DNA from: a virus
Length of the DNA: 21,037 bases
Strand: one strand, 5' to 3'
IMG/VR virus record: IMGVR_UViG_3300021061_000053
Coordinates: 1-21,037 of that record
Shown here: positions 1,291 to 20,751 of the stretch, in pieces
Layout of the letters: the number at the start of each line of letters is the position of its first letter
Position numbering within the stretch: position 1 is the stretch's first letter
The notes under the pieces: generated by a model
The model's input: only the letters and a program-made list of their open reading frames with translations
Database searches by the model: none
What the model was told of the DNA's origin: nothing
Position numbers and translations under genes: made by a program

Positions 1291-1322
1291 CTGGTTTTTC
1301 CTCTCTTTGTTTCCTCTAAAAT

Positions 1323-1354
1323 CATTATCACCTACTAGATTATAATTTGTCAAG
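1323..1354 (-). promoter_or_regulatory. Repeated phage promoter element, copy A
   Basis: On the minus strand this reads TTGACA, an 18-base spacer, then GATAAT, a close match to a sigma-70 promoter, about 34 bases before the start of the 1290 gene. The same 32-base element recurs at 1736, 4789 and 6214, and even the spacer (AATTATA at one end, AGGTG at the other) is largely kept. Conservation beyond the two boxes suggests a shared regulator as well as shared polymerase recognition. Confidence 0.8.
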
Positions 1355-1355
1355 T

Positions 1356-1382
1356 TAAATTAGAAAATTATTTTCTAATTTA
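1356..1382. repeat. 27-base perfect inverted repeat, candidate operator
   Basis: Arms of 13 bases (TAAATTAGAAAAT and its exact complement) flank a single central base. The repeat begins two bases upstream of the TTGACA box of promoter copy A. It lacks the GC-rich stem and T-run of a terminator, so an operator for a dimeric regulator is the better reading. A degenerate version (CTAAACTAGAAAATAA) sits at the same place beside copy B. Confidence 0.6.
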
Positions 1383-1394
1383 GTACACAGACAT

Positions 1395-1419
1395 TAAAAA
1401 AGCCCTCTGGGTGAGGGCT
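1395..1419 (-). terminator. Intrinsic terminator after the 86-residue gene
   Basis: AGCCCTC (1401-1407) pairs with GAGGGCT (1413-1419) around a 5-base loop. On the minus strand the stem is followed by six T. It lies 22 bases beyond the end of the 1441-1701 gene and insulates it from promoter copy A. Confidence 0.85.
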
Positions 1420-4759: not shown

Positions 4760-4788
4760 CTCTCTTCCCCATTTTCTCTCAACAATTT

Positions 4789-4820
4789 CATTATCACCTA
4801 CCTAACTATAATTTGTCAAC
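4789..4820 (-). promoter_or_regulatory. Repeated phage promoter element, copy C
   Basis: Minus-strand TTGACA (4814-4819) and GATAAT (4790-4795) have an 18-base spacer. This is the most diverged copy, changed mainly in the middle of the spacer. Its leader (GAAATTGTTGAGAG) matches that of copy D. It lies in the intergenic region shared with the divergent terS-like gene. Confidence 0.78.
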
Positions 4821-4867
4821 CCTTAAATATAAAAATCTATCAAACTGTAAATAAAACTATAATCACT

Positions 4868-5318: not shown

Positions 5319-5342
5319 GAAAAAGCCCTCTATTTGAGGGCT
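5319..5342. terminator. Terminator between terS-like and the 5363 gene
   Basis: AGCCCTC (5324-5330) and GAGGGCT (5336-5342) pair around 5 bases. The T-run is best on the minus strand, ending the 6183-to-5363 unit. The plus side (GGTCTATTTTATTT) may also end terS transcription. The stem is identical to that of the terminator at 1401. Confidence 0.8.
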
Positions 5343-5362: not shown

Positions 5363-5593
5363 TTATTCCAAATTTCCACTGGCTTTCAATTCATAGACCA
5401 TAGACCAAAACTCTTGTAGACTATTTGCGAGATCCGTTGTTTTTTCGTCTAGCTTTTCTACTTCCACCCAGTTAATCCAAACATCTACAAGATCATCACT
5501 TTGATCTTCTAACCATCGCTTATAAGCCTCTTTAAAAAAGCTAGGTATCTGCGATTCTAGATGGTTTTGAAGTGTCTTAAATGATGTTTCCAT
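5363..5593 (-). CDS. Small acidic unknown protein (76 residues)
   Basis: I do not recognise it. The protein is helical and acidic, with tryptophans spaced through it (KRWLEDQ, VDVWINWVEVEKLDE, EFWSMVYELK), which suggests a small helical bundle or a protein-binding partner. It is the last gene of a three-gene minus-strand unit and its start overlaps the end of the zinc-ribbon gene by 37 bases in another frame, so the two are probably translationally coupled. GGAGAG lies about ten bases before the ATG. The terminator at 5319-5342 follows its stop. Confidence 0.7.
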   Translation of the reverse strand: METSFKTLQNHLESQIPSFFKEAYKRWLEDQSDDLVDVWINWVEVEKLDEKTTDLANSLQEFWSMVYELKASGNLE

Positions 5594-5751
5594 TGTTTCT
5601 CTACTCTCCTATTGGTAAATCTTCTATTGCAGTCTTTGCACAGATAGCGTTGGTCACTAAATCGGCTTCTGCCATTTCTTACAATTTCGTCTGAGTTGCA
5701 GTCTGGACATACACCAGACTCTAGGATTATATATGGATCTACTGGTCTCAT
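5557..5751 (-). CDS. Zinc-ribbon protein, InsA-like fold (64 residues)
   Basis: Two CxxC pairs, CPDC at residues 15-18 and CKDC at 38-41, are separated by 19 residues that include RNGRSRFSDQRYLC. This spacing and the following NRRF resemble the transposase-type zinc ribbon of IS1 InsA and related DNA-binding ribbons. No transposase catalytic partner is nearby, so it is more likely a free-standing DNA- or RNA-binding protein than an IS remnant. Its ATG follows the TAA of the upstream gene with no gap (TAA-ATG), implying translational coupling. The C-terminus is basic and histidine-rich (KQWKHHLRH). Confidence 0.75.
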   Translation of the reverse strand: MRPVDPYIILESGVCPDCNSDEIVRNGRSRFSDQRYLCKDCNRRFTNRRVEKQWKHHLRHFKTI

Positions 5752-6183: not shown

Positions 6184-6213
6184 CTCTTTCTTCTTCTTTC
6201 CTCTCAACAATTC

Positions 6214-6245
6214 CATTATCACCTACTAGATTATAATTTGTCAAG
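6214..6245 (-). promoter_or_regulatory. Repeated phage promoter element, copy D
   Basis: Minus-strand TTGACA and GATAAT (6215-6220) are separated by 18 bases. All 32 bases are identical to copy A. The downstream leader (GAATTGTTGAGAGGAAA) matches copy C. It drives the three-gene unit that starts at 6183. Confidence 0.8.
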
Positions 6246-6265
6246 CTTTTTTATAATTTAGTTTA

Positions 6266-6324: not shown

Positions 6325-6810
6325 TCAATTTCGAGGTGTTGGTGAAGGTTTGAGTTCACCTAACTGATTTGTGGGTGTTTGCTGGATTGTCCTGACTTTA
6401 CCGATAAATCCATCAGCAAAAATAGCAAACCCATAACCCACAGCTGCAAATGTGGCGATCGCTATACCCTGCCACAGCAACTTGTTAAGGTTTTCAGAGA
6501 TTCCATTTTCTCTATTCTCAGTCCTGGTCTTCCATGCCTCCACCACCTCAACGCGAGTATTCAAATTATCTATAAATTTTTGGTTGGTTGTCATATTAGT
6601 CCTAAGCGTGTCAACGTCGTTCCTCACCCGTGGCACTTCTTCTAGCCCCTTTTGGATTTTCAAGAACTCCATCTGATTTTGTTGTTGCTGTTCTAGAATT
6701 TTAGTGAGATTAACCTTAATCTCGTGTATGTCCGACTCTGTGTTGGTCAACTTTACTGCTACTTCGCCTAGAACGCGAAATATCTCCCTCTCATCATTCT
6801 CTATAGCCAT
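6325..6810 (-). CDS. Coiled-coil protein with one C-terminal membrane helix
   Basis: The 161-residue protein has a long heptad-like region (residues about 15-108, rich in L, I, V, E, K and Q) followed by a single hydrophobic helix (residues 111-133, LLWQGIAIATFAAVGYGFAI) and a short proline-rich tail. This layout resembles DUF-type phage and bacterial proteins with a coiled coil plus a membrane anchor, some of them encoded beside lysis genes. A holin or spanin-like role is possible but not shown; the single helix at the C-terminal end argues against a classical holin. AGAGGA precedes the ATG. A terminator follows at 6266-6288. It stands alone between promoter copy D and the divergent plus-strand gene at 6937. 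Confidence 0.75.
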   Translation of the reverse strand: MAIENDEREIFRVLGEVAVKLTNTESDIHEIKVNLTKILEQQQQNQMEFLKIQKGLEEVPRVRNDVDTLRTNMTTNQKFIDNLNTRVEVVEAWKTRTENRENGISENLNKLLWQGIAIATFAAVGYGFAIFADGFIGKVRTIQQTPTNQLGELKPSPTPRN

Positions 6811-7212: not shown

Positions 7213-7216
7213 AAAA

Positions 7217-7236
7217 GAGAGGGGAAAGCCCCTCTC
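7217..7236. terminator. Bidirectional terminator between the 6937 gene and the polymerase
   Basis: GAGAGGGG (7217-7224) pairs with CCCCTCTC (7229-7236) around a 4-base loop. On minus it is followed by TTTTTTATTC, ending the long polymerase operon. The plus side has only a weak T-run. Confidence 0.85.
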
Positions 7237-7240
7237 TGTG

Positions 7241-9274
7241 TTAAATGAGCATTAGCTGCACTTCCACTATTGGTTCCGGTTCTATCTCTATTACTTCTGG
7301 CTCTGCCTCAATCTTGTCTATTTCCTTCTGAACTTCCTTAAGGTAGAAGTCATAATCGATGTTATAATCTTCAGCCTCAAAGTAATCATTAAACAAAGTA
7401 ACGAAGTATCCCGCCACATAGTCAATGTAATGTGACTCACCATCTACAATCTTGCGCTTTCTCATCCGCTTACCGAAGCTAGCATCCATCTTTTCCTCTG
7501 GCTTAGAAACATAATATCGAACTGTCTTTTGAGTGTCTTCTGCACCCAACACAGTATATTCATGAATTGGCTTCTTGAGGGGTTTACCTGTCTTTCCAAG
7601 TGTCCTGCTAACTCTAGACACATCCTCTATAACATTGGTAAATTGCCCTCCCACCTTCTGACTAGCGCAAAAGTCGTATATATCTTTATGATTGTGGAGA
7701 AATATTAGAGGGTCTGTTCCTTCTAAGAAATAAGCCTGTAAAGCCATTGCCACCACTGGGAATTTATACCCGTTGATTAAGCCGCCTTGGGGAACAAAGC
7801 ATCCTTTAGTCTTAATGCTGCCGTCTATCGTGCGACTCAGGTAGTTGTTAACATCCCTCCTTACATACAATTCATAGTGGGTTTCCTCAAGCTCAAACCT
7901 TGTCACTTTTTCCCATGCCTTATAGATCCTCCTGATGTCTTCTAGCTTGTCTTGCGTACTGTCTACTATTATCCCGTCAGTGTTTGCCGATATTACTGAG
8001 TAGCCAGCTTCTTCTAGGTCTTCCACCAGCATCATAAGCATTAGCTGATTATTTACCGTCACAGCAAAAGTTACTTGGGGATCGAACAACCAGAATGTTT
8101 TTGAGTTAAGTAGCCCATACACAGAATTTATTGCGATTTTAAGTCCAGCTTGAATTACATCACTTTCTTTACTCTCTTTACGTCGTTTCTTGTGGTAGAG
8201 TCGCTGATCAACAATGTCTTTGAGGAGTGGTAGAAATACATTAGGATCTAAATGCTGGGGACATAAATTATTATTTAATATCGCTAGGGGGTATTGCGAC
8301 ATTACGTCGGCATCTAACAGTAATCTATCACCAGTAGCTCTGATAACTGTTGGTTTATCTTCTGAGTGAATACCGCCCAAACCAATAGAGTAGGTGGTTC
8401 CTTTGAATGTTAGCTTAGGAATATCGCACTCGTATTTATCCCTTGCTGGTGTTGAATCTATCTTTTTAATGACTTTGTTCTTCAGATCTGAGAGAAAGGC
8501 TTGCAATTCCTGAGTTTTAAACTTTATGTAAGGGTAGATGATATCAACCATCCAGATATCATCACGCTCAGTTTTACTCTGCTTAAACTCTTTAAAAGCC
8601 TCATTGCTCATGCTAGCTTTTTCTTGATACCACTTATTCAGAAGTATCTTAGCGATCGCTGAGTCGCTGGCACTATGTAACTTAGCGTTAAATAGAGAGG
8701 ATAAATCAGCCCTCATGTTCAGTTCGCCTTCTACAGCCTCCAGAAGCTTTAATGTAACTTCAACGTCATTCTTGTTATAGTCTAGTAACGTGGGTTCGTC
8801 TTCGGGTTTGATTTCGTCCGTATAGTGGAATGGGAGATCCTGAACTTTAGGATATTTCAGATTAACTCCCACGCCTTTGAGCGAGATAACATTGTAACCA
8901 GCGCGAATGATCTCAAGCAAGTCATAAGACCGACTGAAAGACTTAGCACTATTCTTAAAGACATTCCACCCCTCAATACAACTTTGAGCAAAAGCATAGA
9001 TGGCTTCCACAGTTGCTTGGGGATTACGACTAATAAACTCTATTACTCCATCATCGAAGTTAGAGTTGTTGAAGCCAATTAGATAGCGATCGCGTATTGT
9101 GGCTAGAATCTTCTCACGGTCATTCCGGCTTTCACTAATTACAAACTGCTTAAAACAATCTGATTGATTTTGAGCAATTCGGTTAAGGCTAGCAAAAGTG
9201 ACGCTAAAGAAATTGGGGTAAGTCTCAACGTCATAGACCAGCCCCAATTTGATAATATCTTCAGGTAATTTCAT
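7241..9274 (-). CDS. Family B DNA polymerase with 3'-5' exonuclease and terminal clamp motif
   Basis: This is the phage replicative polymerase. The exonuclease has Exo I YDVET (D15, E17), Exo II NNSNFD (N70-D74) and Exo III YNKND (Y166-D170). The polymerase has motif A DVMSQYP (D323-P329), motif B KIAINSVYG (K379-G387) and motif C ANTDG (N431-G434). In motif C the usual DTD is NTD; the second Asp is kept and this variant is seen in other phage polymerases. Only about 50 residues lie between motifs A and B, so the TPR1 insertion of protein-primed polymerases is absent. The last residues are QLMLI, like the beta-clamp-binding pentapeptide QL(S/D)LF and the QLGLF end of E. coli Pol II. GAGAGAGGG precedes the ATG. 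It is the last gene of the operon starting at 11464. Confidence 0.95.
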   Translation of the reverse strand: MKLPEDIIKLGLVYDVETYPNFFSVTFASLNRIAQNQSDCFKQFVISESRNDREKILATIRDRYLIGFNNSNFDDGVIEFISRNPQATVEAIYAFAQSCIEGWNVFKNSAKSFSRSYDLLEIIRAGYNVISLKGVGVNLKYPKVQDLPFHYTDEIKPEDEPTLLDYNKNDVEVTLKLLEAVEGELNMRADLSSLFNAKLHSASDSAIAKILLNKWYQEKASMSNEAFKEFKQSKTERDDIWMVDIIYPYIKFKTQELQAFLSDLKNKVIKKIDSTPARDKYECDIPKLTFKGTTYSIGLGGIHSEDKPTVIRATGDRLLLDADVMSQYPLAILNNNLCPQHLDPNVFLPLLKDIVDQRLYHKKRRKESKESDVIQAGLKIAINSVYGLLNSKTFWLFDPQVTFAVTVNNQLMLMMLVEDLEEAGYSVISANTDGIIVDSTQDKLEDIRRIYKAWEKVTRFELEETHYELYVRRDVNNYLSRTIDGSIKTKGCFVPQGGLINGYKFPVVAMALQAYFLEGTDPLIFLHNHKDIYDFCASQKVGGQFTNVIEDVSRVSRTLGKTGKPLKKPIHEYTVLGAEDTQKTVRYYVSKPEEKMDASFGKRMRKRKIVDGESHYIDYVAGYFVTLFNDYFEAEDYNIDYDFYLKEVQKEIDKIEAEPEVIEIEPEPIVEVQLMLI

Positions 9275-9297: not shown

Positions 9298-9462
9298 TTA
9301 AAGCTCTTCTTCTGGTATGTCTGGGAAGTCATAATGACCAATCATGTTGTTTAAGCTGTCTTGAAGCATTCTATTTTCGCTTTTCTCCCTTTCAAAACTC
9401 AAACCTAAAAGAAAGAAAAATCCCCAAGACATAACCAGTAAAATTCCTAAAATAAACCCCAT
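9298..9462 (-). CDS. Tiny membrane protein (54 residues), last of the cluster
   Basis: An N-terminal hydrophobic helix (residues 2-22, rich in F, L, I and G) is followed by a charged cytoplasmic-type tail with FEREKSENR and an acidic end (DIPEEEL). GGAGG lies nine bases before the ATG, within the end of the previous ORF, whose TAA directly abuts this ATG. The stop is 23 bases before the polymerase start. The length, start signal and coupling make it the most convincing of the five mini ORFs. No family is known to me. Confidence 0.72.
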   Translation of the reverse strand: MGFILGILLVMSWGFFFLLGLSFEREKSENRMLQDSLNNMIGHYDFPDIPEEEL

Positions 9463-9540
9463 TTAATCTGCCTCCTCAAAATCAAAACCGAATAAAAAGA
9501 TAAAACCGAAATACACAATGATTATTAACAAAATATCCAT
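9463..9540 (-). CDS. Mini membrane protein (25 residues)
   Basis: Nearly the whole peptide is one hydrophobic helix (MDILLIIIVYFGFIF and onwards), closed by the acidic end DFEEAD, which would favour one orientation in the membrane. GAGGAT is seven bases before the ATG. The ATG overlaps the previous stop as TAATG, and its own TAA abuts the next ATG. The end codes EEAD using the GAGGAG that also serves as ribosome-binding site for the 54-residue gene. Confidence 0.6.
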   Translation of the reverse strand: MDILLIIIVYFGFIFLFGFDFEEAD

Positions 9541-9611
9541 TACAAATCCTCAATAACCTTAACTATAACAACTGTGATACAAATGATTAAGACGATATAA
9601 ACTACTTCCAT
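9540..9611 (-). CDS. Mini membrane protein (23 residues)
   Basis: A single hydrophobic helix of V, I and L residues (MEVVYIVLIICITVVIV) ends in KVIEDL. Its ATG is preceded by AATTGGAGATTTCTG, almost the same 15 bases that precede the 20-residue gene, which suggests tandem duplication of this kind of unit. The stop overlaps the next start as TAATG. Confidence 0.58.
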   Translation of the reverse strand: MEVVYIVLIICITVVIVKVIEDL

Positions 9612-9630
9612 CAGAAATCTCCAATTACTT

Positions 9631-9693
9631 TTAATACAATATCAACACAAGAATCATTAAACATACAGCCACAACAAGGAATACTAAACCCAT
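9631..9693 (-). CDS. Mini membrane protein (20 residues)
   Basis: This is the shortest ORF of the cluster: a 20-residue peptide with no charged residue, all V, L, I, M, A, F, C and G closed by a Y. GGAG lies eight bases before the ATG. The start overlaps the previous stop as TAATG. Chance hydrophobic ORFs of this size are common; the call rests on the ribosome-binding site and on the run of coupled neighbours. Confidence 0.52.
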   Translation of the reverse strand: MGLVFLVVAVCLMILVLILY

Positions 9694-9779
9694 TAGAAAT
9701 CTCCAATTAAAAAGTGAATAACTAAAAGGTAGCCACCAACAAATAACACAACTACACTAACCCCTATCAATGTCGTCAT
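9693..9779 (-). CDS. Mini membrane protein (28 residues)
   Basis: The ORF begins 23 bases before the end of the 86-residue membrane gene, in another frame. The ATG closely follows GGAGGA. The peptide is one helix (MTTLIGVSVVVLFVGGYLLV and onwards) with a single His inside and GDF at the end. Its stop overlaps the start of the 20-residue gene. The ribosome-binding site is close to the ATG (three bases), so initiation may depend on translation of the upstream gene. Confidence 0.5.
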   Translation of the reverse strand: MTTLIGVSVVVLFVGGYLLVIHFLIGDF

Positions 9780-10017
9780 CTTCCTCCATACCAGCACGAG
9801 TTTTAGTAAACTTGATTGAATCGTCTTTCTCGAATCTCTCTAGAATGGTTGTTAGTTCATTAAGTGCTAAGTTAAAAACATTTAAGAACAACAAACCACC
9901 TGGGGATATAAAGTCTTTACCCTGCGTTGCCAAACCTGCGGTTGCAGCTAGCGTTACACTCAAAACAGCATTCCAAAAAAGAGGGGTAGCAAGCAAATTA
10001 CGGTCTTTTCCGCGCAT
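9757..10017 (-). CDS. Small membrane protein, holin-like layout (86 residues)
   Basis: A basic N-terminus (MRGKDRN) precedes two hydrophobic segments: residues about 10-31 (ATPLFWNAVLSVTLAATAGL) and about 38-58 (SPGGLLFLNVFNLALNELTTIL). A charged tail follows (ERFEKDDSIKFTKTRAG, then EEDDDIDRG). Two helices, small size and a charged tail are typical of class II holins, but the second segment is only moderately hydrophobic and no endolysin is adjacent. It follows the kinase gene by 34 bases in the same operon. Holin is a guess; a small membrane protein is well supported. Confidence 0.75.
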   Translation of the reverse strand: MRGKDRNLLATPLFWNAVLSVTLAATAGLATQGKDFISPGGLLFLNVFNLALNELTTILERFEKDDSIKFTKTRAGMEEDDDIDRG

Positions 10018-10051: not shown

Positions 10052-10681
10052 TTAGTTGTTAGCTATATTGAGAGAAGACTCGTAAAGGCTGCGTAATCGA
10101 GAGATTGTAGGGCAACCTAGTTCACCCATACAAATGTCTAAGTCGCGGAACAAATTACTGTCATACTCGTTACTAACTACACATCCTCTATCGGAGATTT
10201 GCATTAAAGTATCATCAATTTCAGCCAGATTAATATCAGAACTTTCTTCTCGTTCTCGGTTGCCGGAAATATTGATAAAACTTAATTCGGCATCATGCAG
10301 AACTACCATTGCTGCAATCGTCTTCACTTCTTCTAAATTACGGATGCTTTGAATTGAAATAGTTCTAGCTCCTTCGTTAAGGAATAGTCTTTCAATTTCA
10401 CTAGCTAGCATCTTTGCACCAAAGTTAGAATCTCTTACTCGCCAGAAATGAAAGCAATCAACTAACATCTGCTGATATGTACAGGTAGAATCTTCTGGTG
10501 TTTCAGCCTTCACGTCCTGGTCATCTAGTTCCCCAGCCTTTAGTCCATAAATATTTTCTAGAAAGGCTTTAAGCGGCTTGATAGGGGAAGTATTAGGGAT
10601 GCCGTAAACTTCTTGGAGATAGTCAGCAACGGTAGATTTGCCAGAATTAGTAAGTCCAGTGATAGCGATGATTTTTTTCAT
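10052..10681 (-). CDS. Deoxynucleoside monophosphate kinase-like protein
   Basis: The N-terminus MKKIIAITG leads into a clear Walker A (G9-x4-G14-K15-S16-T17). What follows fits phage dNMP kinase-type P-loop proteins: KPLKAFLENIYGL, a region with FHFWRVRDSNFGAKML (residues about 87-106), and later ISGNREREESS that may be the lid arginines. Such enzymes phosphorylate dNMPs to dNDPs for phage DNA synthesis. I place the start at the ATG at 10681; the frame extends to a TTG at 10696 but without a clear ribosome-binding site. It overlaps the upstream gene by 35 bases in another frame. It lies in the polymerase operon beside a deoxyribosyltransferase-like gene. Confidence 0.82.
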   Translation of the reverse strand: MKKIIAITGLTNSGKSTVADYLQEVYGIPNTSPIKPLKAFLENIYGLKAGELDDQDVKAETPEDSTCTYQQMLVDCFHFWRVRDSNFGAKMLASEIERLFLNEGARTISIQSIRNLEEVKTIAAMVVLHDAELSFINISGNREREESSDINLAEIDDTLMQISDRGCVVSNEYDSNLFRDLDICMGELGCPTISRLRSLYESSLNIANN

Positions 10682-11105
10682 GATTGATAATTTCAAAAAT
10701 TGCTTGATTTAGATTGCTAGACTGATTACCAGCACAGAGTAAGAACGGATGTAGCTTAAACTCTTCTGGAATATTGAAGATAAAGAGATCTTTACCTGAG
10801 CCAAACCCGTAACCCAACTCAAAGAGAGTTCCGATCATAGGTTTAGTCTTTAAACCTTCAAAGTTGATCAGAATATAATGAGAGGTAAGAATGTCTGTAA
10901 TATCTCGGAAGAATATTTCATCAGCTTTGATATCAACATTCTGGTCGTTAATAACTCCTACAGAGTCTAAAAACTCTTTCCCTCTCATTGGGTCACGAAC
11001 CATTAAACCCGCTGCTTGTAGCTTCTCTGTGGCTTCCTTGCGCCAGCCAGTTGCTTCTTCGTAAGTTAGACCATTAATAGAACCTGCTAAGTAAACGGTT
11101 TTCAT
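10647..11105 (-). CDS. Nucleoside 2-deoxyribosyltransferase-like protein
   Basis: The sequence opens with MKTVYLAGSINGL, the first strand and loop of the nucleoside 2-deoxyribosyltransferase superfamily. It has FFRDITDI (D68, D71) and the signature GTLFELGYG with the candidate catalytic E96 followed by a glycine-rich loop. At 152 residues it has the normal length. Enzymes of this fold exchange or cleave bases from deoxynucleosides or deoxynucleotides; some phage members hydrolyse or remodel nucleotides. Substrate cannot be read from sequence. Its ATG overlaps the stop of the 34-residue ORF (ATGA), and its end overlaps the kinase gene. Confidence 0.82.
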   Translation of the reverse strand: MKTVYLAGSINGLTYEEATGWRKEATEKLQAAGLMVRDPMRGKEFLDSVGVINDQNVDIKADEIFFRDITDILTSHYILINFEGLKTKPMIGTLFELGYGFGSGKDLFIFNIPEEFKLHPFLLCAGNQSSNLNQAIFEIINHEKNHRYHWTY

Positions 11106-12867: not shown

Positions 12868-13980
12868 TTAGCTCCTTTGTTGAACAGGCATAATTAGGCA
12901 GTTGTAATTAGACTCGATAACCACTGGGGATAATGGCTTCTCACCCTGCTTAATCTTTATTTCCTTGGTTGTTCCTTTTTGTAGAACTTCCAATAAATAA
13001 TGGAGATTAAACGCTAACTTCTGTAAAGAGCCTTTACAACCAACCACTTGCGTAATTACAAGCTCTCTATCGCTATTTAGAACGTCAATCCTTAAACCAT
13101 CATGGATCAGTAGAGTTACAAGAGGTGGGTTGTATTCCTTTTTATCTAAAACTTTAGAGGCTGTCTGGATGACATTTAGCAGGTCTAAGCGGTTGATGAT
13201 GGCTTCATATTTGATATCTGTGGGGATGATACCGAAATATTTTGGGTATTGTCCTTCTAGCAACCTGCTTCTTAACGTTGTCTTAACCTCAACTAAAGTA
13301 AAAAGAATTTCTTCTTTGGTAAAAGTAACTAATAATTCTGAGTCGGATGCCTTTTTCAGAGTTCTCAACAATTCTTCACAGGTTTTTCCAGGAATGGTTA
13401 AACTCTCCAGGTTGGGGAACTCACCATCAAATGAGATGTAGGCTAGTCTGTGTCCATCCGTTGCTGCAAAGTTAATAAGTCCTAAATCAGAAGCATTTAT
13501 ATTCACACCACATAAAACCTGTTTCGTTTCGTCTAGGCTGGTGGCGAAGATTGTTGATTCTAGCGCCTCTATAAGGTTTTTACGATCAGTTAAAAACTGT
13601 TGTGGTTCTACTAGAGGGTCTATTTCGGGTAATTCGTCATCAATTAGCGATAACCTCACGGCGTTGCAATCATCCCCAACATTTAAATTACCCCTTACTA
13701 CCTCTAAAGATATATTTTCACTAGATAGCGCCCTTACAGTATCTTTCAGCTTTTTAGCTTTGGTATAAAACTTTGTATCCTGTAATACATTTGAGATATT
13801 ATTTATTGCTATTGTTAACTCCTGATTTAGGTTAAAACACCTCATGACTAACAACCCTTTCCTACTATCTGTTGTTAGCTCAACCCCTTCTAGAATCTCA
13901 TGTGTGGGTCTTTGAGGGACAATTTTCACGAGCCTGTCAAGTGCTGACAATAGCTGTTTGCGATCGGCTATAATAGTCAT
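12868..13980 (-). CDS. dnaN: DNA polymerase III beta subunit-like sliding clamp
   Basis: The sequence begins MTIIADRKQLLSALDRLVKIVPQRPTHEILEGV, the typical start of a bacterial beta clamp (helix, then the strand VxLxxD). At 370 residues it has the normal length for three clamp domains (about 1-120, 121-250 and 251-370). FAATDGHRLAYI in the second domain matches the conserved TDGHRL signature, and the end CLIMPVQ matches the family's MPM/V terminus that forms the peptide-binding pocket. The clamp is a dimeric ring that tethers polymerases to DNA. An extended -10 box lies upstream. As the window also encodes a polymerase ending in a clamp-binding-like peptide, this clamp probably serves that enzyme. 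Confidence 0.95.
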   Translation of the reverse strand: MTIIADRKQLLSALDRLVKIVPQRPTHEILEGVELTTDSRKGLLVMRCFNLNQELTIAINNISNVLQDTKFYTKAKKLKDTVRALSSENISLEVVRGNLNVGDDCNAVRLSLIDDELPEIDPLVEPQQFLTDRKNLIEALESTIFATSLDETKQVLCGVNINASDLGLINFAATDGHRLAYISFDGEFPNLESLTIPGKTCEELLRTLKKASDSELLVTFTKEEILFTLVEVKTTLRSRLLEGQYPKYFGIIPTDIKYEAIINRLDLLNVIQTASKVLDKKEYNPPLVTLLIHDGLRIDVLNSDRELVITQVVGCKGSLQKLAFNLHYLLEVLQKGTTKEIKIKQGEKPLSPVVIESNYNCLIMPVQQRS

Positions 13981-19666: not shown

Positions 19667-20032
19667 ATGGCAGATATATCAACAGAATCAATTGTTTATA
19701 CAAAACCACAAGCTGTAACACCAATGAGTGTTAACTATATCCAATCAATAACTCTTAATTTATCTGAGCGTAGCAATTTTATTATTACTCCACTTACCGG
19801 AAATCTCACACTTACTTTTTCTAACCCGATACCAGGAACAGGTGGCTGTATTGAGTTACGGCAAGATTCTATAGGCGGTAGAACCTTAAGTCTGGCTGGC
19901 ACCAATGTATTGCGAAATGCTGGAACCAACCCAACACTATCAATTGCAGCAAATAGTTATGATATTTTAACTTACTACGTTGATAGTAATTCCAAGATTT
20001 GTATAAATCTCGGTATGAAAGGAGTGGCTTAA
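19667..20032 (+). CDS. Small strand-rich tail-associated protein (121 residues)
   Basis: The sequence is built of short strands with many N, T, S and G residues (FIITPLTGNLTLTFSNPIPGTGG and LSLAGTNVLRNAGTNPTLSI), like single domains of phage tail fibres. It starts four bases after the large tail gene and ends three bases before the LamG gene, so it belongs to one tail operon. A receptor-binding or fibre-tip role is inferred from context and composition. The same pattern (TGNLTLTFSNP...GGCIELRQD) occurs in many phage fibre proteins of my acquaintance, without an assigned function. Confidence 0.78.
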   Translation: MADISTESIVYTKPQAVTPMSVNYIQSITLNLSERSNFIITPLTGNLTLTFSNPIPGTGGCIELRQDSIGGRTLSLAGTNVLRNAGTNPTLSIAANSYDILTYYVDSNSKICINLGMKGVA

Positions 20033-20034
20033 TA

Positions 20035-20751
20035 ATGCACCCAAGTTCTTTATTTATTCCTGGATTTTCTGATCATAGTGCTAATGGTTCTGGTGATGCC
20101 CCTCCGTTGACAGATCCACATTATAGCAATGTGCATTTATTAATGAGTATGGATGGGGTTAATAACAGTACAAATTTTGTTAACTCCAAAACCAATAATT
20201 TAGCAACCGTTGTTGGCAACACGAAAATAGTAACCGATAAATTTAAATCTGGATCTAGTAGTGCTTATTTTGATGGTTCTGGCGACAGTCTTTATTTTCC
20301 AGGATCTGAAGTTAGTGCTGGTGGCAATACTAATTTTACAATTGAGGGTTATATATATCCAACAACAGCAAGCGAGGGAATACTTTTTACAACATATAAT
20401 ATTGGTGATGGTAGCCAACATTCGGCGATTATAGCTTGGCGATCGGTTCTTCAACTGGCTAACATTTTTGTAATTAATCAAACTATAGCATCTAATATTT
20501 GGCAACATTATGCAATAACAAGATTTGGAAATACTTGGAGAGTTTTCGTTGATGGTATTTTACAAGGATCTGCCGAAGCCGCTGCTAGTATATCACAAGG
20601 AAACAGGTTTCACATTGGTGGCAGTCCTGGCGATAATAATATAGGTGGTGTTTGGTTCACTGGATATATGGATGATATTAGAGTTACCTATGGAATTGCT
20701 CGGTATATAGACAACTTCATACCACCAACCACACCATATCCAACAAGTTAA
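20035..20751 (+). CDS. LamG (concanavalin A-like) domain tail protein
   Basis: The 238-residue protein is almost entirely one LamG/concanavalin-like jelly roll (residues about 30-228), the carbohydrate-binding type found in phage tail fibres. Signatures in order are HLLMSMDG, YFDGSGDSLYFP, FTIEGYIYP, WQHYAITR, FVDG and GYMDDIRVTYGIARY, closed by FIPPTTPYP. These match the usual LamG order (LLLHFDG, DG..DYL, FT.E.W..., W.H.A..R..., ..DG, ..DELRIT.G.ARY...F.PPT). I use the ATG at 20035, which follows AGGAGTGGCT; the longer frame begins inside the upstream gene. It most likely binds a cell-surface polysaccharide. A weak terminator follows. Confidence 0.9.
   Translation: MHPSSLFIPGFSDHSANGSGDAPPLTDPHYSNVHLLMSMDGVNNSTNFVNSKTNNLATVVGNTKIVTDKFKSGSSSAYFDGSGDSLYFPGSEVSAGGNTNFTIEGYIYPTTASEGILFTTYNIGDGSQHSAIIAWRSVLQLANIFVINQTIASNIWQHYAITRFGNTWRVFVDGILQGSAEAAASISQGNRFHIGGSPGDNNIGGVWFTGYMDDIRVTYGIARYIDNFIPPTTPYPTS

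What the first reader, a model, noticed from the sequence alone, without database searches (positions are those of the whole stretch)
9298..9779. Run of five coupled mini membrane proteins before the polymerase
Five consecutive ORFs of 28, 20, 23, 25 and 54 residues each start with an ATG, most have a ribosome-binding site, and each contains one hydrophobic helix. Junctions are TAATG, TAATG, TAA-ATG or short gaps. They fill the space between two larger genes on one strand without waste. I know of no described phage cassette of this kind. Lysis, superinfection exclusion, or anchoring of replication to membranes are possible.
Basis: partly seen in the sequence, partly recalled or inferred. Interest (0 to 1): 0.75.

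Follow-up and report, generated by a model that had tools for sequence, protein, structure and literature searches.

The report
Chain of five tiny membrane genes
An uncultured virus, probably of cyanobacteria, carries five very small back-to-back genes, each predicted to make a single membrane-spanning helix, squeezed into its DNA-copying operon; they look real and seem to have grown partly by gene duplication, but what they do to the host is not known.

Summary
Five ORFs of 28, 20, 23, 25 and 54 codons lie at 9779-9298 (minus strand). Each starts with ATG, has a Shine-Dalgarno (SD) sequence upstream, encodes one hydrophobic helix, and is joined stop-to-start (TAATG, 19 nt, TAATG, TAA-ATG). 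In 2,000 shuffles the longest such chain was 1. In 2.18 Mb of other loci, mostly relatives of this phage's polymerase, no chain of 3 exists with SDs required. The last gene, E54, has a syntenic homologue in the second-nearest relative found (L015: kinase, 85-aa membrane protein, polymerase). In the nearest (L095) kinase and polymerase overlap and nothing lies between. So this is a lineage-specific, growing insertion. D resembles the E54 helix, and the SD-plus-start segments before B and C are 85% identical over 27 nt, which points to tandem duplication. The SDs of B and C can pair in a 16-bp hairpin, consistent with coupled translation. No family matches any of the five. Function is inferred only: early accessory membrane peptides acting on host membrane proteins or on superinfection, placed like T4 imm beside the polymerase. 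Lysis, replication anchoring, toxin and translational-relay readings remain open.

The parts
9693..9779 (-). mini-ORF A, 28 aa, one hydrophobic helix
   Evidence: GGAGG only 3 nt before its ATG; start inside the end of u86
9631..9693 (-). mini-ORF B, 20 aa, helix only, no charged residue; start overlaps the stop of A (TAATG)
   Evidence: GGAG 7 nt before ATG; sequence after its stop reads KVIGDF* in another frame
9540..9611 (-). mini-ORF C, 23 aa, one helix
   Evidence: GGAG 7 nt before ATG; resembles B
9463..9540 (-). mini-ORF D, 25 aa, one helix; start overlaps the stop of C (TAATG)
   Evidence: GAGG 7 nt before ATG; resembles the E54 helix, p 0.001
9298..9462 (-). E54, 54 aa: N-terminal helix plus charged, partly helical tail; starts directly after the stop of D
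   Evidence: homologue L015:4708-4962 in the same position; model: one helix 2-41, mean pLDDT 77.5
9757..10017 (-). u86, 86-aa ORF with two predicted helices and an acidic tail; overlaps A by 23 nt; part of the inserted block
   Evidence: (low-confidence model, helices 12-31 and 39-65); no family or relative found
9683..9709 (-). 27-nt segment with SD and start of B, 85% identical to the one at C
   Evidence: family D6
9601..9627 (-). 27-nt segment with SD and start of C
   Evidence: family D6
9610..9707 (-). predicted RNA hairpin: SD/start of B (9692-9707) pairs with SD/start of C (9610-9625), 16 pairs, B coding region in the loop
   Evidence: -21 kcal/mol, z -2.34, 5 of 200 shuffles as stable
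10052..10696 (-). deoxynucleoside monophosphate kinase-like gene upstream of the block (TTG start as listed; a likelier ATG lies 5 codons inside)
   Evidence: PHROG 139, 1.6e-12
7241..9274 (-). family-B DNA polymerase downstream of the block
   Evidence: PHROG 1252, 7.3e-136
7216..7237 (-). intrinsic terminator-like hairpin with T run just after the polymerase: probable operon end

Best explanation
A lineage-specific block of tiny single-helix membrane-protein genes inserted at the kinase-polymerase junction of a phage replication operon. One gene, E54 (helix plus charged tail), is the older member; at least D, and probably B and C, arose by tandem duplication of helix-encoding segments together with their ribosome-binding sites. 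The genes are translated in relay: stops overlap or closely precede the next start, the SD of each gene lies in the last codons of the gene before it (for B to C only in another frame), and the SDs of B and C can mask each other in a hairpin that ribosomes arriving from A would open. The peptides insert into the host cytoplasmic or thylakoid membrane when the replication genes are expressed. Because they are present in some relatives and absent in others while the polymerase is kept, the likeliest role is accessory: modifying host membrane proteins or excluding superinfecting phage, as T4 Imm does from a gene near the T4 polymerase gene. Shown here: ORFs, SDs, non-chance chain, E54 homologue, insert-free junction in a relative, partial paralogy. 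Inferred: translation, membrane insertion, coupling. Function is a guess (about 0.3).
For: Chain of 5 against at most 1-2 in 2,000 shuffles and none of 3 or more with SD in 2.18 Mb of other loci. SD 7-8 nt before four of five starts, while neighbouring operon genes lack clear SDs. E54 and the L015 85-aa ORF: similar (none of 2,000 composition-preserving shuffles) and syntenic. L095: kinase and polymerase overlap, no insert. D-E54 similarity p 0.001, B-C p about 0.02; DNA similarity C-D 0/500 and B-C 2/500; 27-nt 85% repeat over SD and start. Hairpin between the SDs of B and C, 5/200. T4 imm lies between polymerase 43 and gene 42.
Against: No relative has A-D, so no selection test is possible. 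E54 homology rests on one relative and a collection scan confirmed none. B departs in frame from the pattern of its neighbours. A shows no paralogy and a poorly spaced SD. The p-values are not corrected for the number of pairs tried. Whole-region RNA folding is not unusual (z 0.74). u86 and Imm share no sequence similarity (p 0.98). No functional data.
Confidence: 0.35

Rival explanations
1. Replication anchoring: E54 (and u86) tether the polymerase or its partners to the membrane through charged cytoplasmic tails, as phi29 p1 and p16.7 are proposed to do; A-D are helix partners.
For: Position directly before the polymerase in the same operon; helix plus charged tail of E54 and of its L015 homologue; phi29 precedent (PMC4974454).
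Against: Nearest polymerase relative has no such gene; small membrane ORFs are not enriched before this polymerase family (2/54 against 6/202); acidic tails are unlikely to bind DNA.
Confidence: 0.14
2. Translational relay: the peptides matter little; the chain of short ORFs with mutually masking SDs sets how many ribosomes reach E54 and the polymerase.
For: Stop-start junctions; 16-bp pairing of the SDs of B and C.
Against: All five encode strongly hydrophobic helices, which a relay does not need; only one junction shows a notable hairpin; the polymerase has its own SD-like AGAGGG.
Confidence: 0.13
3. Lysis control: u86 is a small two-helix holin-like protein and the minis tune its timing.
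For: Two predicted helices in u86; single-helix peptides are typical of holin modulators; a distant XhlA/hemolysin-like hit lies downstream of the polymerase (6325-6810).
Against: The genes lie in a replication operon that ends at a terminator after the polymerase, so expression is probably early; no holin family match and no structural match; no endolysin in the block.
Confidence: 0.13
4. Partly decayed block: E54 is a real gene, and A-D are duplicated or frame-shifted remnants with no function of their own.
For: Frame discrepancy at B; absence of A-D in both relatives; D lies in frame with E54, separated only by TAA.
Against: All keep ATG, an SD and an unbroken helix, far from chance; decay would not be expected to preserve SD spacing in B, C and D.
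Confidence: 0.12
5. Small membrane toxins of the type I kind (like Ibs or Zor), acting on the membrane potential.
For: Size and hydrophobicity like IbsC (19 aa), ShoB (26 aa) and ZorO (29 aa); tandem duplication is typical of such toxins (PMC8309996).
Against: C-terminal cationic residues, common in type I toxins, are absent, ends are acidic; open, well-spaced SDs in an operon; no antisense promoter above background; no RNA family match.
Confidence: 0.06
6. Chance ORFs in T-rich non-coding sequence.
For: The strand is 40% T, which favours hydrophobic codons.
Against: 0 of 2,000 shuffles with the same dinucleotides reach even 3; E54 homologue in L015.
Confidence: 0.03

Closest known systems
T4 Imm (superinfection immunity), near the DNA polymerase gene 43
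   Same: Short hydrophobic early protein encoded in the replication operon beside the polymerase; Imm is 83 aa with two hydrophobic stretches, u86 is 86 aa with two predicted helices
   Different: No sequence similarity to u86 (p 0.98); one gene, not a chain; exclusion function not tested here
phi29 p16.7 and p1 (membrane anchors of phage replication)
   Same: Membrane protein of a phage connected with replication (PMC4974454); E54 has a helix plus a soluble tail
   Different: No homology detected by the family searches; E54 tail is short and acidic; not general beside this polymerase
Type I toxins Ibs, ShoB, ZorO
   Same: Single-helix peptides of 19-29 aa, often tandemly duplicated (PMC8309996)
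   Different: No antisense RNA found, acidic instead of cationic ends, operon with open SDs
Bacterial small membrane proteins such as YohP (27 aa)
   Same: Show that peptides this short can be inserted through SRP and SecYEG/YidC (PMC7549839)
   Different: Chromosomal stress-related proteins of E. coli, not a chained phage block; no sequence relation tested
L015 85-aa ORF (IMGVR_UViG_3300008963_000076)
   Same: Same position between kinase and polymerase, N-terminal helix with GFFFLLG and charged tail
   Different: Single gene; longer, very acidic tail; no A-D or u86

Membership tests
E54 / L015 85-aa family (proposed here) | sequence similarity and the position kinase, ORF, polymerase | tested here: met
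   one relative only, and scan 51 confirmed none
Tandem paralogues of E54 | similarity of the A-D helices to E54 or to each other beyond composition | tested here: inconclusive
   D-E54 p 0.001, B-C p about 0.02, A none; DNA C-D 0/500, B-C 2/500; uncorrected
T4 Imm-type superinfection exclusion | sequence similarity to Imm | tested here: not met
   u86 against Imm p 0.98
T4 Imm-type superinfection exclusion | blocks DNA entry of superinfecting phage | not testable with these tools
   needs an experiment
Type I membrane toxins | hydrophobic helix under 60 aa | tested here: met
Type I membrane toxins | cationic residues near the C-terminus (general trend in PMC8309996) | tested here: not met
   A, B and D have no K or R, C has one; ends acidic or uncharged
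Type I membrane toxins | antisense RNA antitoxin | tested here: inconclusive
   no Rfam match; promoter-like sites not above background
Holin | match to a holin family | tested here: not met
   Pfam, PHROGs and NCBIfam at E up to 10
Holin | late expression and membrane permeabilisation | not testable with these tools
   position in a replication operon suggests early expression (inference)
phi29-type replication membrane anchor | membrane gene regularly beside the polymerase in this polymerase family | tested here: not met
   2 of 54 polymerases against 6 of 202 controls
phi29-type replication membrane anchor | binds DNA, terminal protein or polymerase | not testable with these tools
   needs biochemistry

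The most novel reading that the evidence does not exclude
A new kind of expandable phage module: membrane-helix mini-genes multiplied by tandem duplication, each carrying the ribosome-binding site of the next in its own last codons, read as a stop-start relay so that a set of different single-helix peptides is made in a fixed proportion inside the replication operon.
Probability: 0.25. Interest if true: 0.7.

Novelty: new variant of a known kind. Interest (0 to 1): 0.48.

Why it matters
Genes of 20-28 codons usually fall below annotation limits, so chains like this would be missed by standard pipelines. The block shows three states among relatives: no insert (L095), one membrane gene (L015) and six ORFs (here), which makes small-gene birth in a phage directly testable. 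If translated, it is a compact model of how phages build sets of membrane peptides and couple their synthesis.

Tried and rejected
DNA search of phage records: no match. Exact 21-mer scan of IMG/VR: none. First genome scan with the polymerase: nothing; second: only distant polymerases, 30% or less. u86 in phage records and viral contigs: none. E54/L85 profile scan: none confirmed. Plasmids: only distant polymerases. E54 and A in phage records: none, even at E 10. Families at E up to 10: only chance-level hits. Foldseek of u86 against viral models: nothing; the model is poor (pLDDT 68). Small membrane ORFs as a general neighbour of this polymerase: not so. Nostoc phage A-1(L), whose polymerase is also preceded by three small ORFs: those are not hydrophobic. 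Photosystem-type single-helix subunits: considered from memory only; no family match to any mini-ORF, not pursued. Reading D and E as one protein: they are in frame but separated by TAA; no sign of recoding. Whole-region RNA structure: not unusual. S-CBS1 and KBS-S-2A share the metallophosphatase gene, but no polymerase is annotated in the stretches fetched, so they were no help. In one similarity test B was also compared in a hypothetical form joined to the other frame; it gave nothing that plain B did not.

Full report
Observation. Each has one hydrophobic stretch (best 19-mer Kyte-Doolittle mean 2.4 to 3.3). SDs GGAG, GGAG, GAGG and GGAGG stand 7-8 nt before B, C, D and E; A has GGAGG at only 3 nt. 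Junctions are A-B overlap 1, B-C gap 19, C-D overlap 1, D-E 0, E-polymerase 23. The genes just upstream in the operon (p85, NDT, kinase, u86) have no clear SD at the starts used, so the regular SDs of the minis stand out.

Chance. In 2,000 dinucleotide-preserving shuffles of the 546-nt region the longest chain of ATG mini-ORFs with a hydrophobic segment was 1 with an SD required and 2 without; 5 were observed. Across 2.18 Mb of 229 loci, mostly phage contigs carrying this polymerase family, no other SD-bearing chain of 3 or more exists; without an SD there is one chain of 3. Many of those phages may not use SDs, so the second figure is the fairer one for them. The chain is not chance.

Surroundings. 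The window is a 21-kb virus record. HIP1 (GCGATCGC) occurs 6 times against 0.11 expected, so a cyanobacterial host is likely. On the minus strand the order is clamp, metallophosphatase/exonuclease, an 85-aa ORF, nucleoside deoxyribosyltransferase (NDT), dNMP kinase-like, u86, A-E, family-B polymerase (PHROG 1252, E 7e-136), then a strong terminator at 7237-7216. u86 (10017-9757) overlaps A by 23 nt and is part of the same inserted block; it is predicted, with low confidence, as two helices with a disordered acidic tail.

Relatives. In L095 the order NDT, kinase, polymerase is kept and kinase and polymerase overlap (ATGA), with nothing between. In L015 the kinase is followed by one 85-aa ORF with an N-terminal helix and acidic tail, then the polymerase. 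That ORF aligns with E54 around GFFFLLG and the following charged stretch; with helix and tail shuffled separately, none of 2,000 trials reached the score. A collection-wide scan with the pair confirmed no hit at E 1e-3, so the homology rests on one relative plus synteny. Thus three states are seen: nothing, one gene, six ORFs.

Origin. D resembles the E54 helix (p 0.001) and B resembles C (p about 0.02). At the DNA level C-D and B-C are more alike than shuffles (0 and 2 of 500), and the 27-nt segments spanning the SD and start of B and of C are 85% identical. These p-values are not corrected for the pairs tried. A shows no clear kinship at the protein level. Tandem duplication is therefore likely for B, C, D and E, and not shown for A or u86. 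B's end departs from the pattern: the sequence after its stop reads KVIGDF* in another frame and ends in TGATG. This may be a partly decayed copy or a sequence error.

Mechanism. The SDs sit in the last codons of the preceding gene (ATT GGA GAT TTC at the end of A; ATT GAG GAT TTG at the end of C; GAG GAG GCA GAT at the end of D; ATG GAG GAA GAT in u86); for B to C this holds only in the other frame. This also explains part of the acidic C-termini. The SDs of B and C can pair with each other (16 pairs, 5 of 200 shuffles as stable), although the region as a whole is not unusually folded. A ribosome finishing A would open this hairpin. Coupled translation is thus plausible but unproven. Peptides of this size can be inserted by SRP with SecYEG/YidC (YohP, PMC7549839).

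Function. Nothing in Pfam, PHROGs or NCBIfam identifies the peptides, nor do phage records for E54 and A. Patchy presence beside a conserved polymerase argues for an accessory role. Small membrane ORFs are not a general neighbour of this polymerase (2/54 against 6/202 controls), which weakens the replication-anchor idea. In T4, imm, a short gene for superinfection immunity by a membrane change, lies between polymerase 43 and gene 42; this is a parallel of position only, without sequence similarity. I therefore rank early host-membrane modification or superinfection exclusion first (about 0.3), then replication anchoring, translational relay, lysis control and partial decay at 0.12-0.14 each, and a toxin at 0.06. 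Rough separate confidences: real translated genes 0.85 for E54 and 0.75 for A-D; duplication origin 0.6; coupled translation 0.65.

Novelty. Small phage membrane proteins are well known, and over 2 million small phage genes are reported (PMC11323111). In the papers found I saw no described phage block of five chained single-helix mini-genes, but most subscription papers are not held. I call it a new variant of a known kind.

Noticed in passing
window 1294-1373, 1707-1786, 4772-4824, 6185-6264 (minus strand): Four near-identical promoter-like elements TTGACAAATTATAATCTAGTAGGTGATAATG before minus-strand genes; the spacer is conserved too, so they may also bind a regulator.
   Followed up: partly
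window 7241-9274, C-terminus, with 12868-13980: The polymerase ends in QLMLI and relatives in QISLF/QTSLF, like a sliding-clamp binding motif (from memory); the phage encodes its own DnaN-like clamp (PHROG 947).
   Followed up: no
window 3105, 5057, 6455, 8652, 9086, 12787: Six HIP1 octamers against 0.11 expected, a cyanobacterial host signature; L228 (record of L095) has 4 against 0.15, L227 (record of L015) none.
   Followed up: partly
window 6325-6810 (-): 161-aa protein with long charged N-part and C-terminal helix, weak hit to a hemolysin (XhlA-like) PHROG 1193, E 3e-4.
   Followed up: no
window 5557-5751 (-): 64-aa stand-alone InsA-type zinc ribbon (Pfam PF03811, E 7e-10) without a transposase.
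   Followed up: no
window 1397-1419 and 5320-5342: Two copies of a terminator-like inverted repeat, AAAAAGCCCTC...GAGGGCT, 87% identical (D9).
   Followed up: no
window 19999-20751 (+): Laminin-G/concanavalin-like lectin domain protein after the GTA-like tail protein, possibly receptor binding.
   Followed up: no
L227 5018-6105: In the record of L015 the NlpC/P60 gene sits divergently next to the kinase, whereas in the window it lies about 5 kb away: local rearrangement between relatives.
   Followed up: no
window 9611-9706 (-): Around B a second frame reads ...SCVDIVLKVIGDF* and ends in TGATG at the start of C, so the end of B differs in frame from the pattern of A and C.
   Followed up: partly
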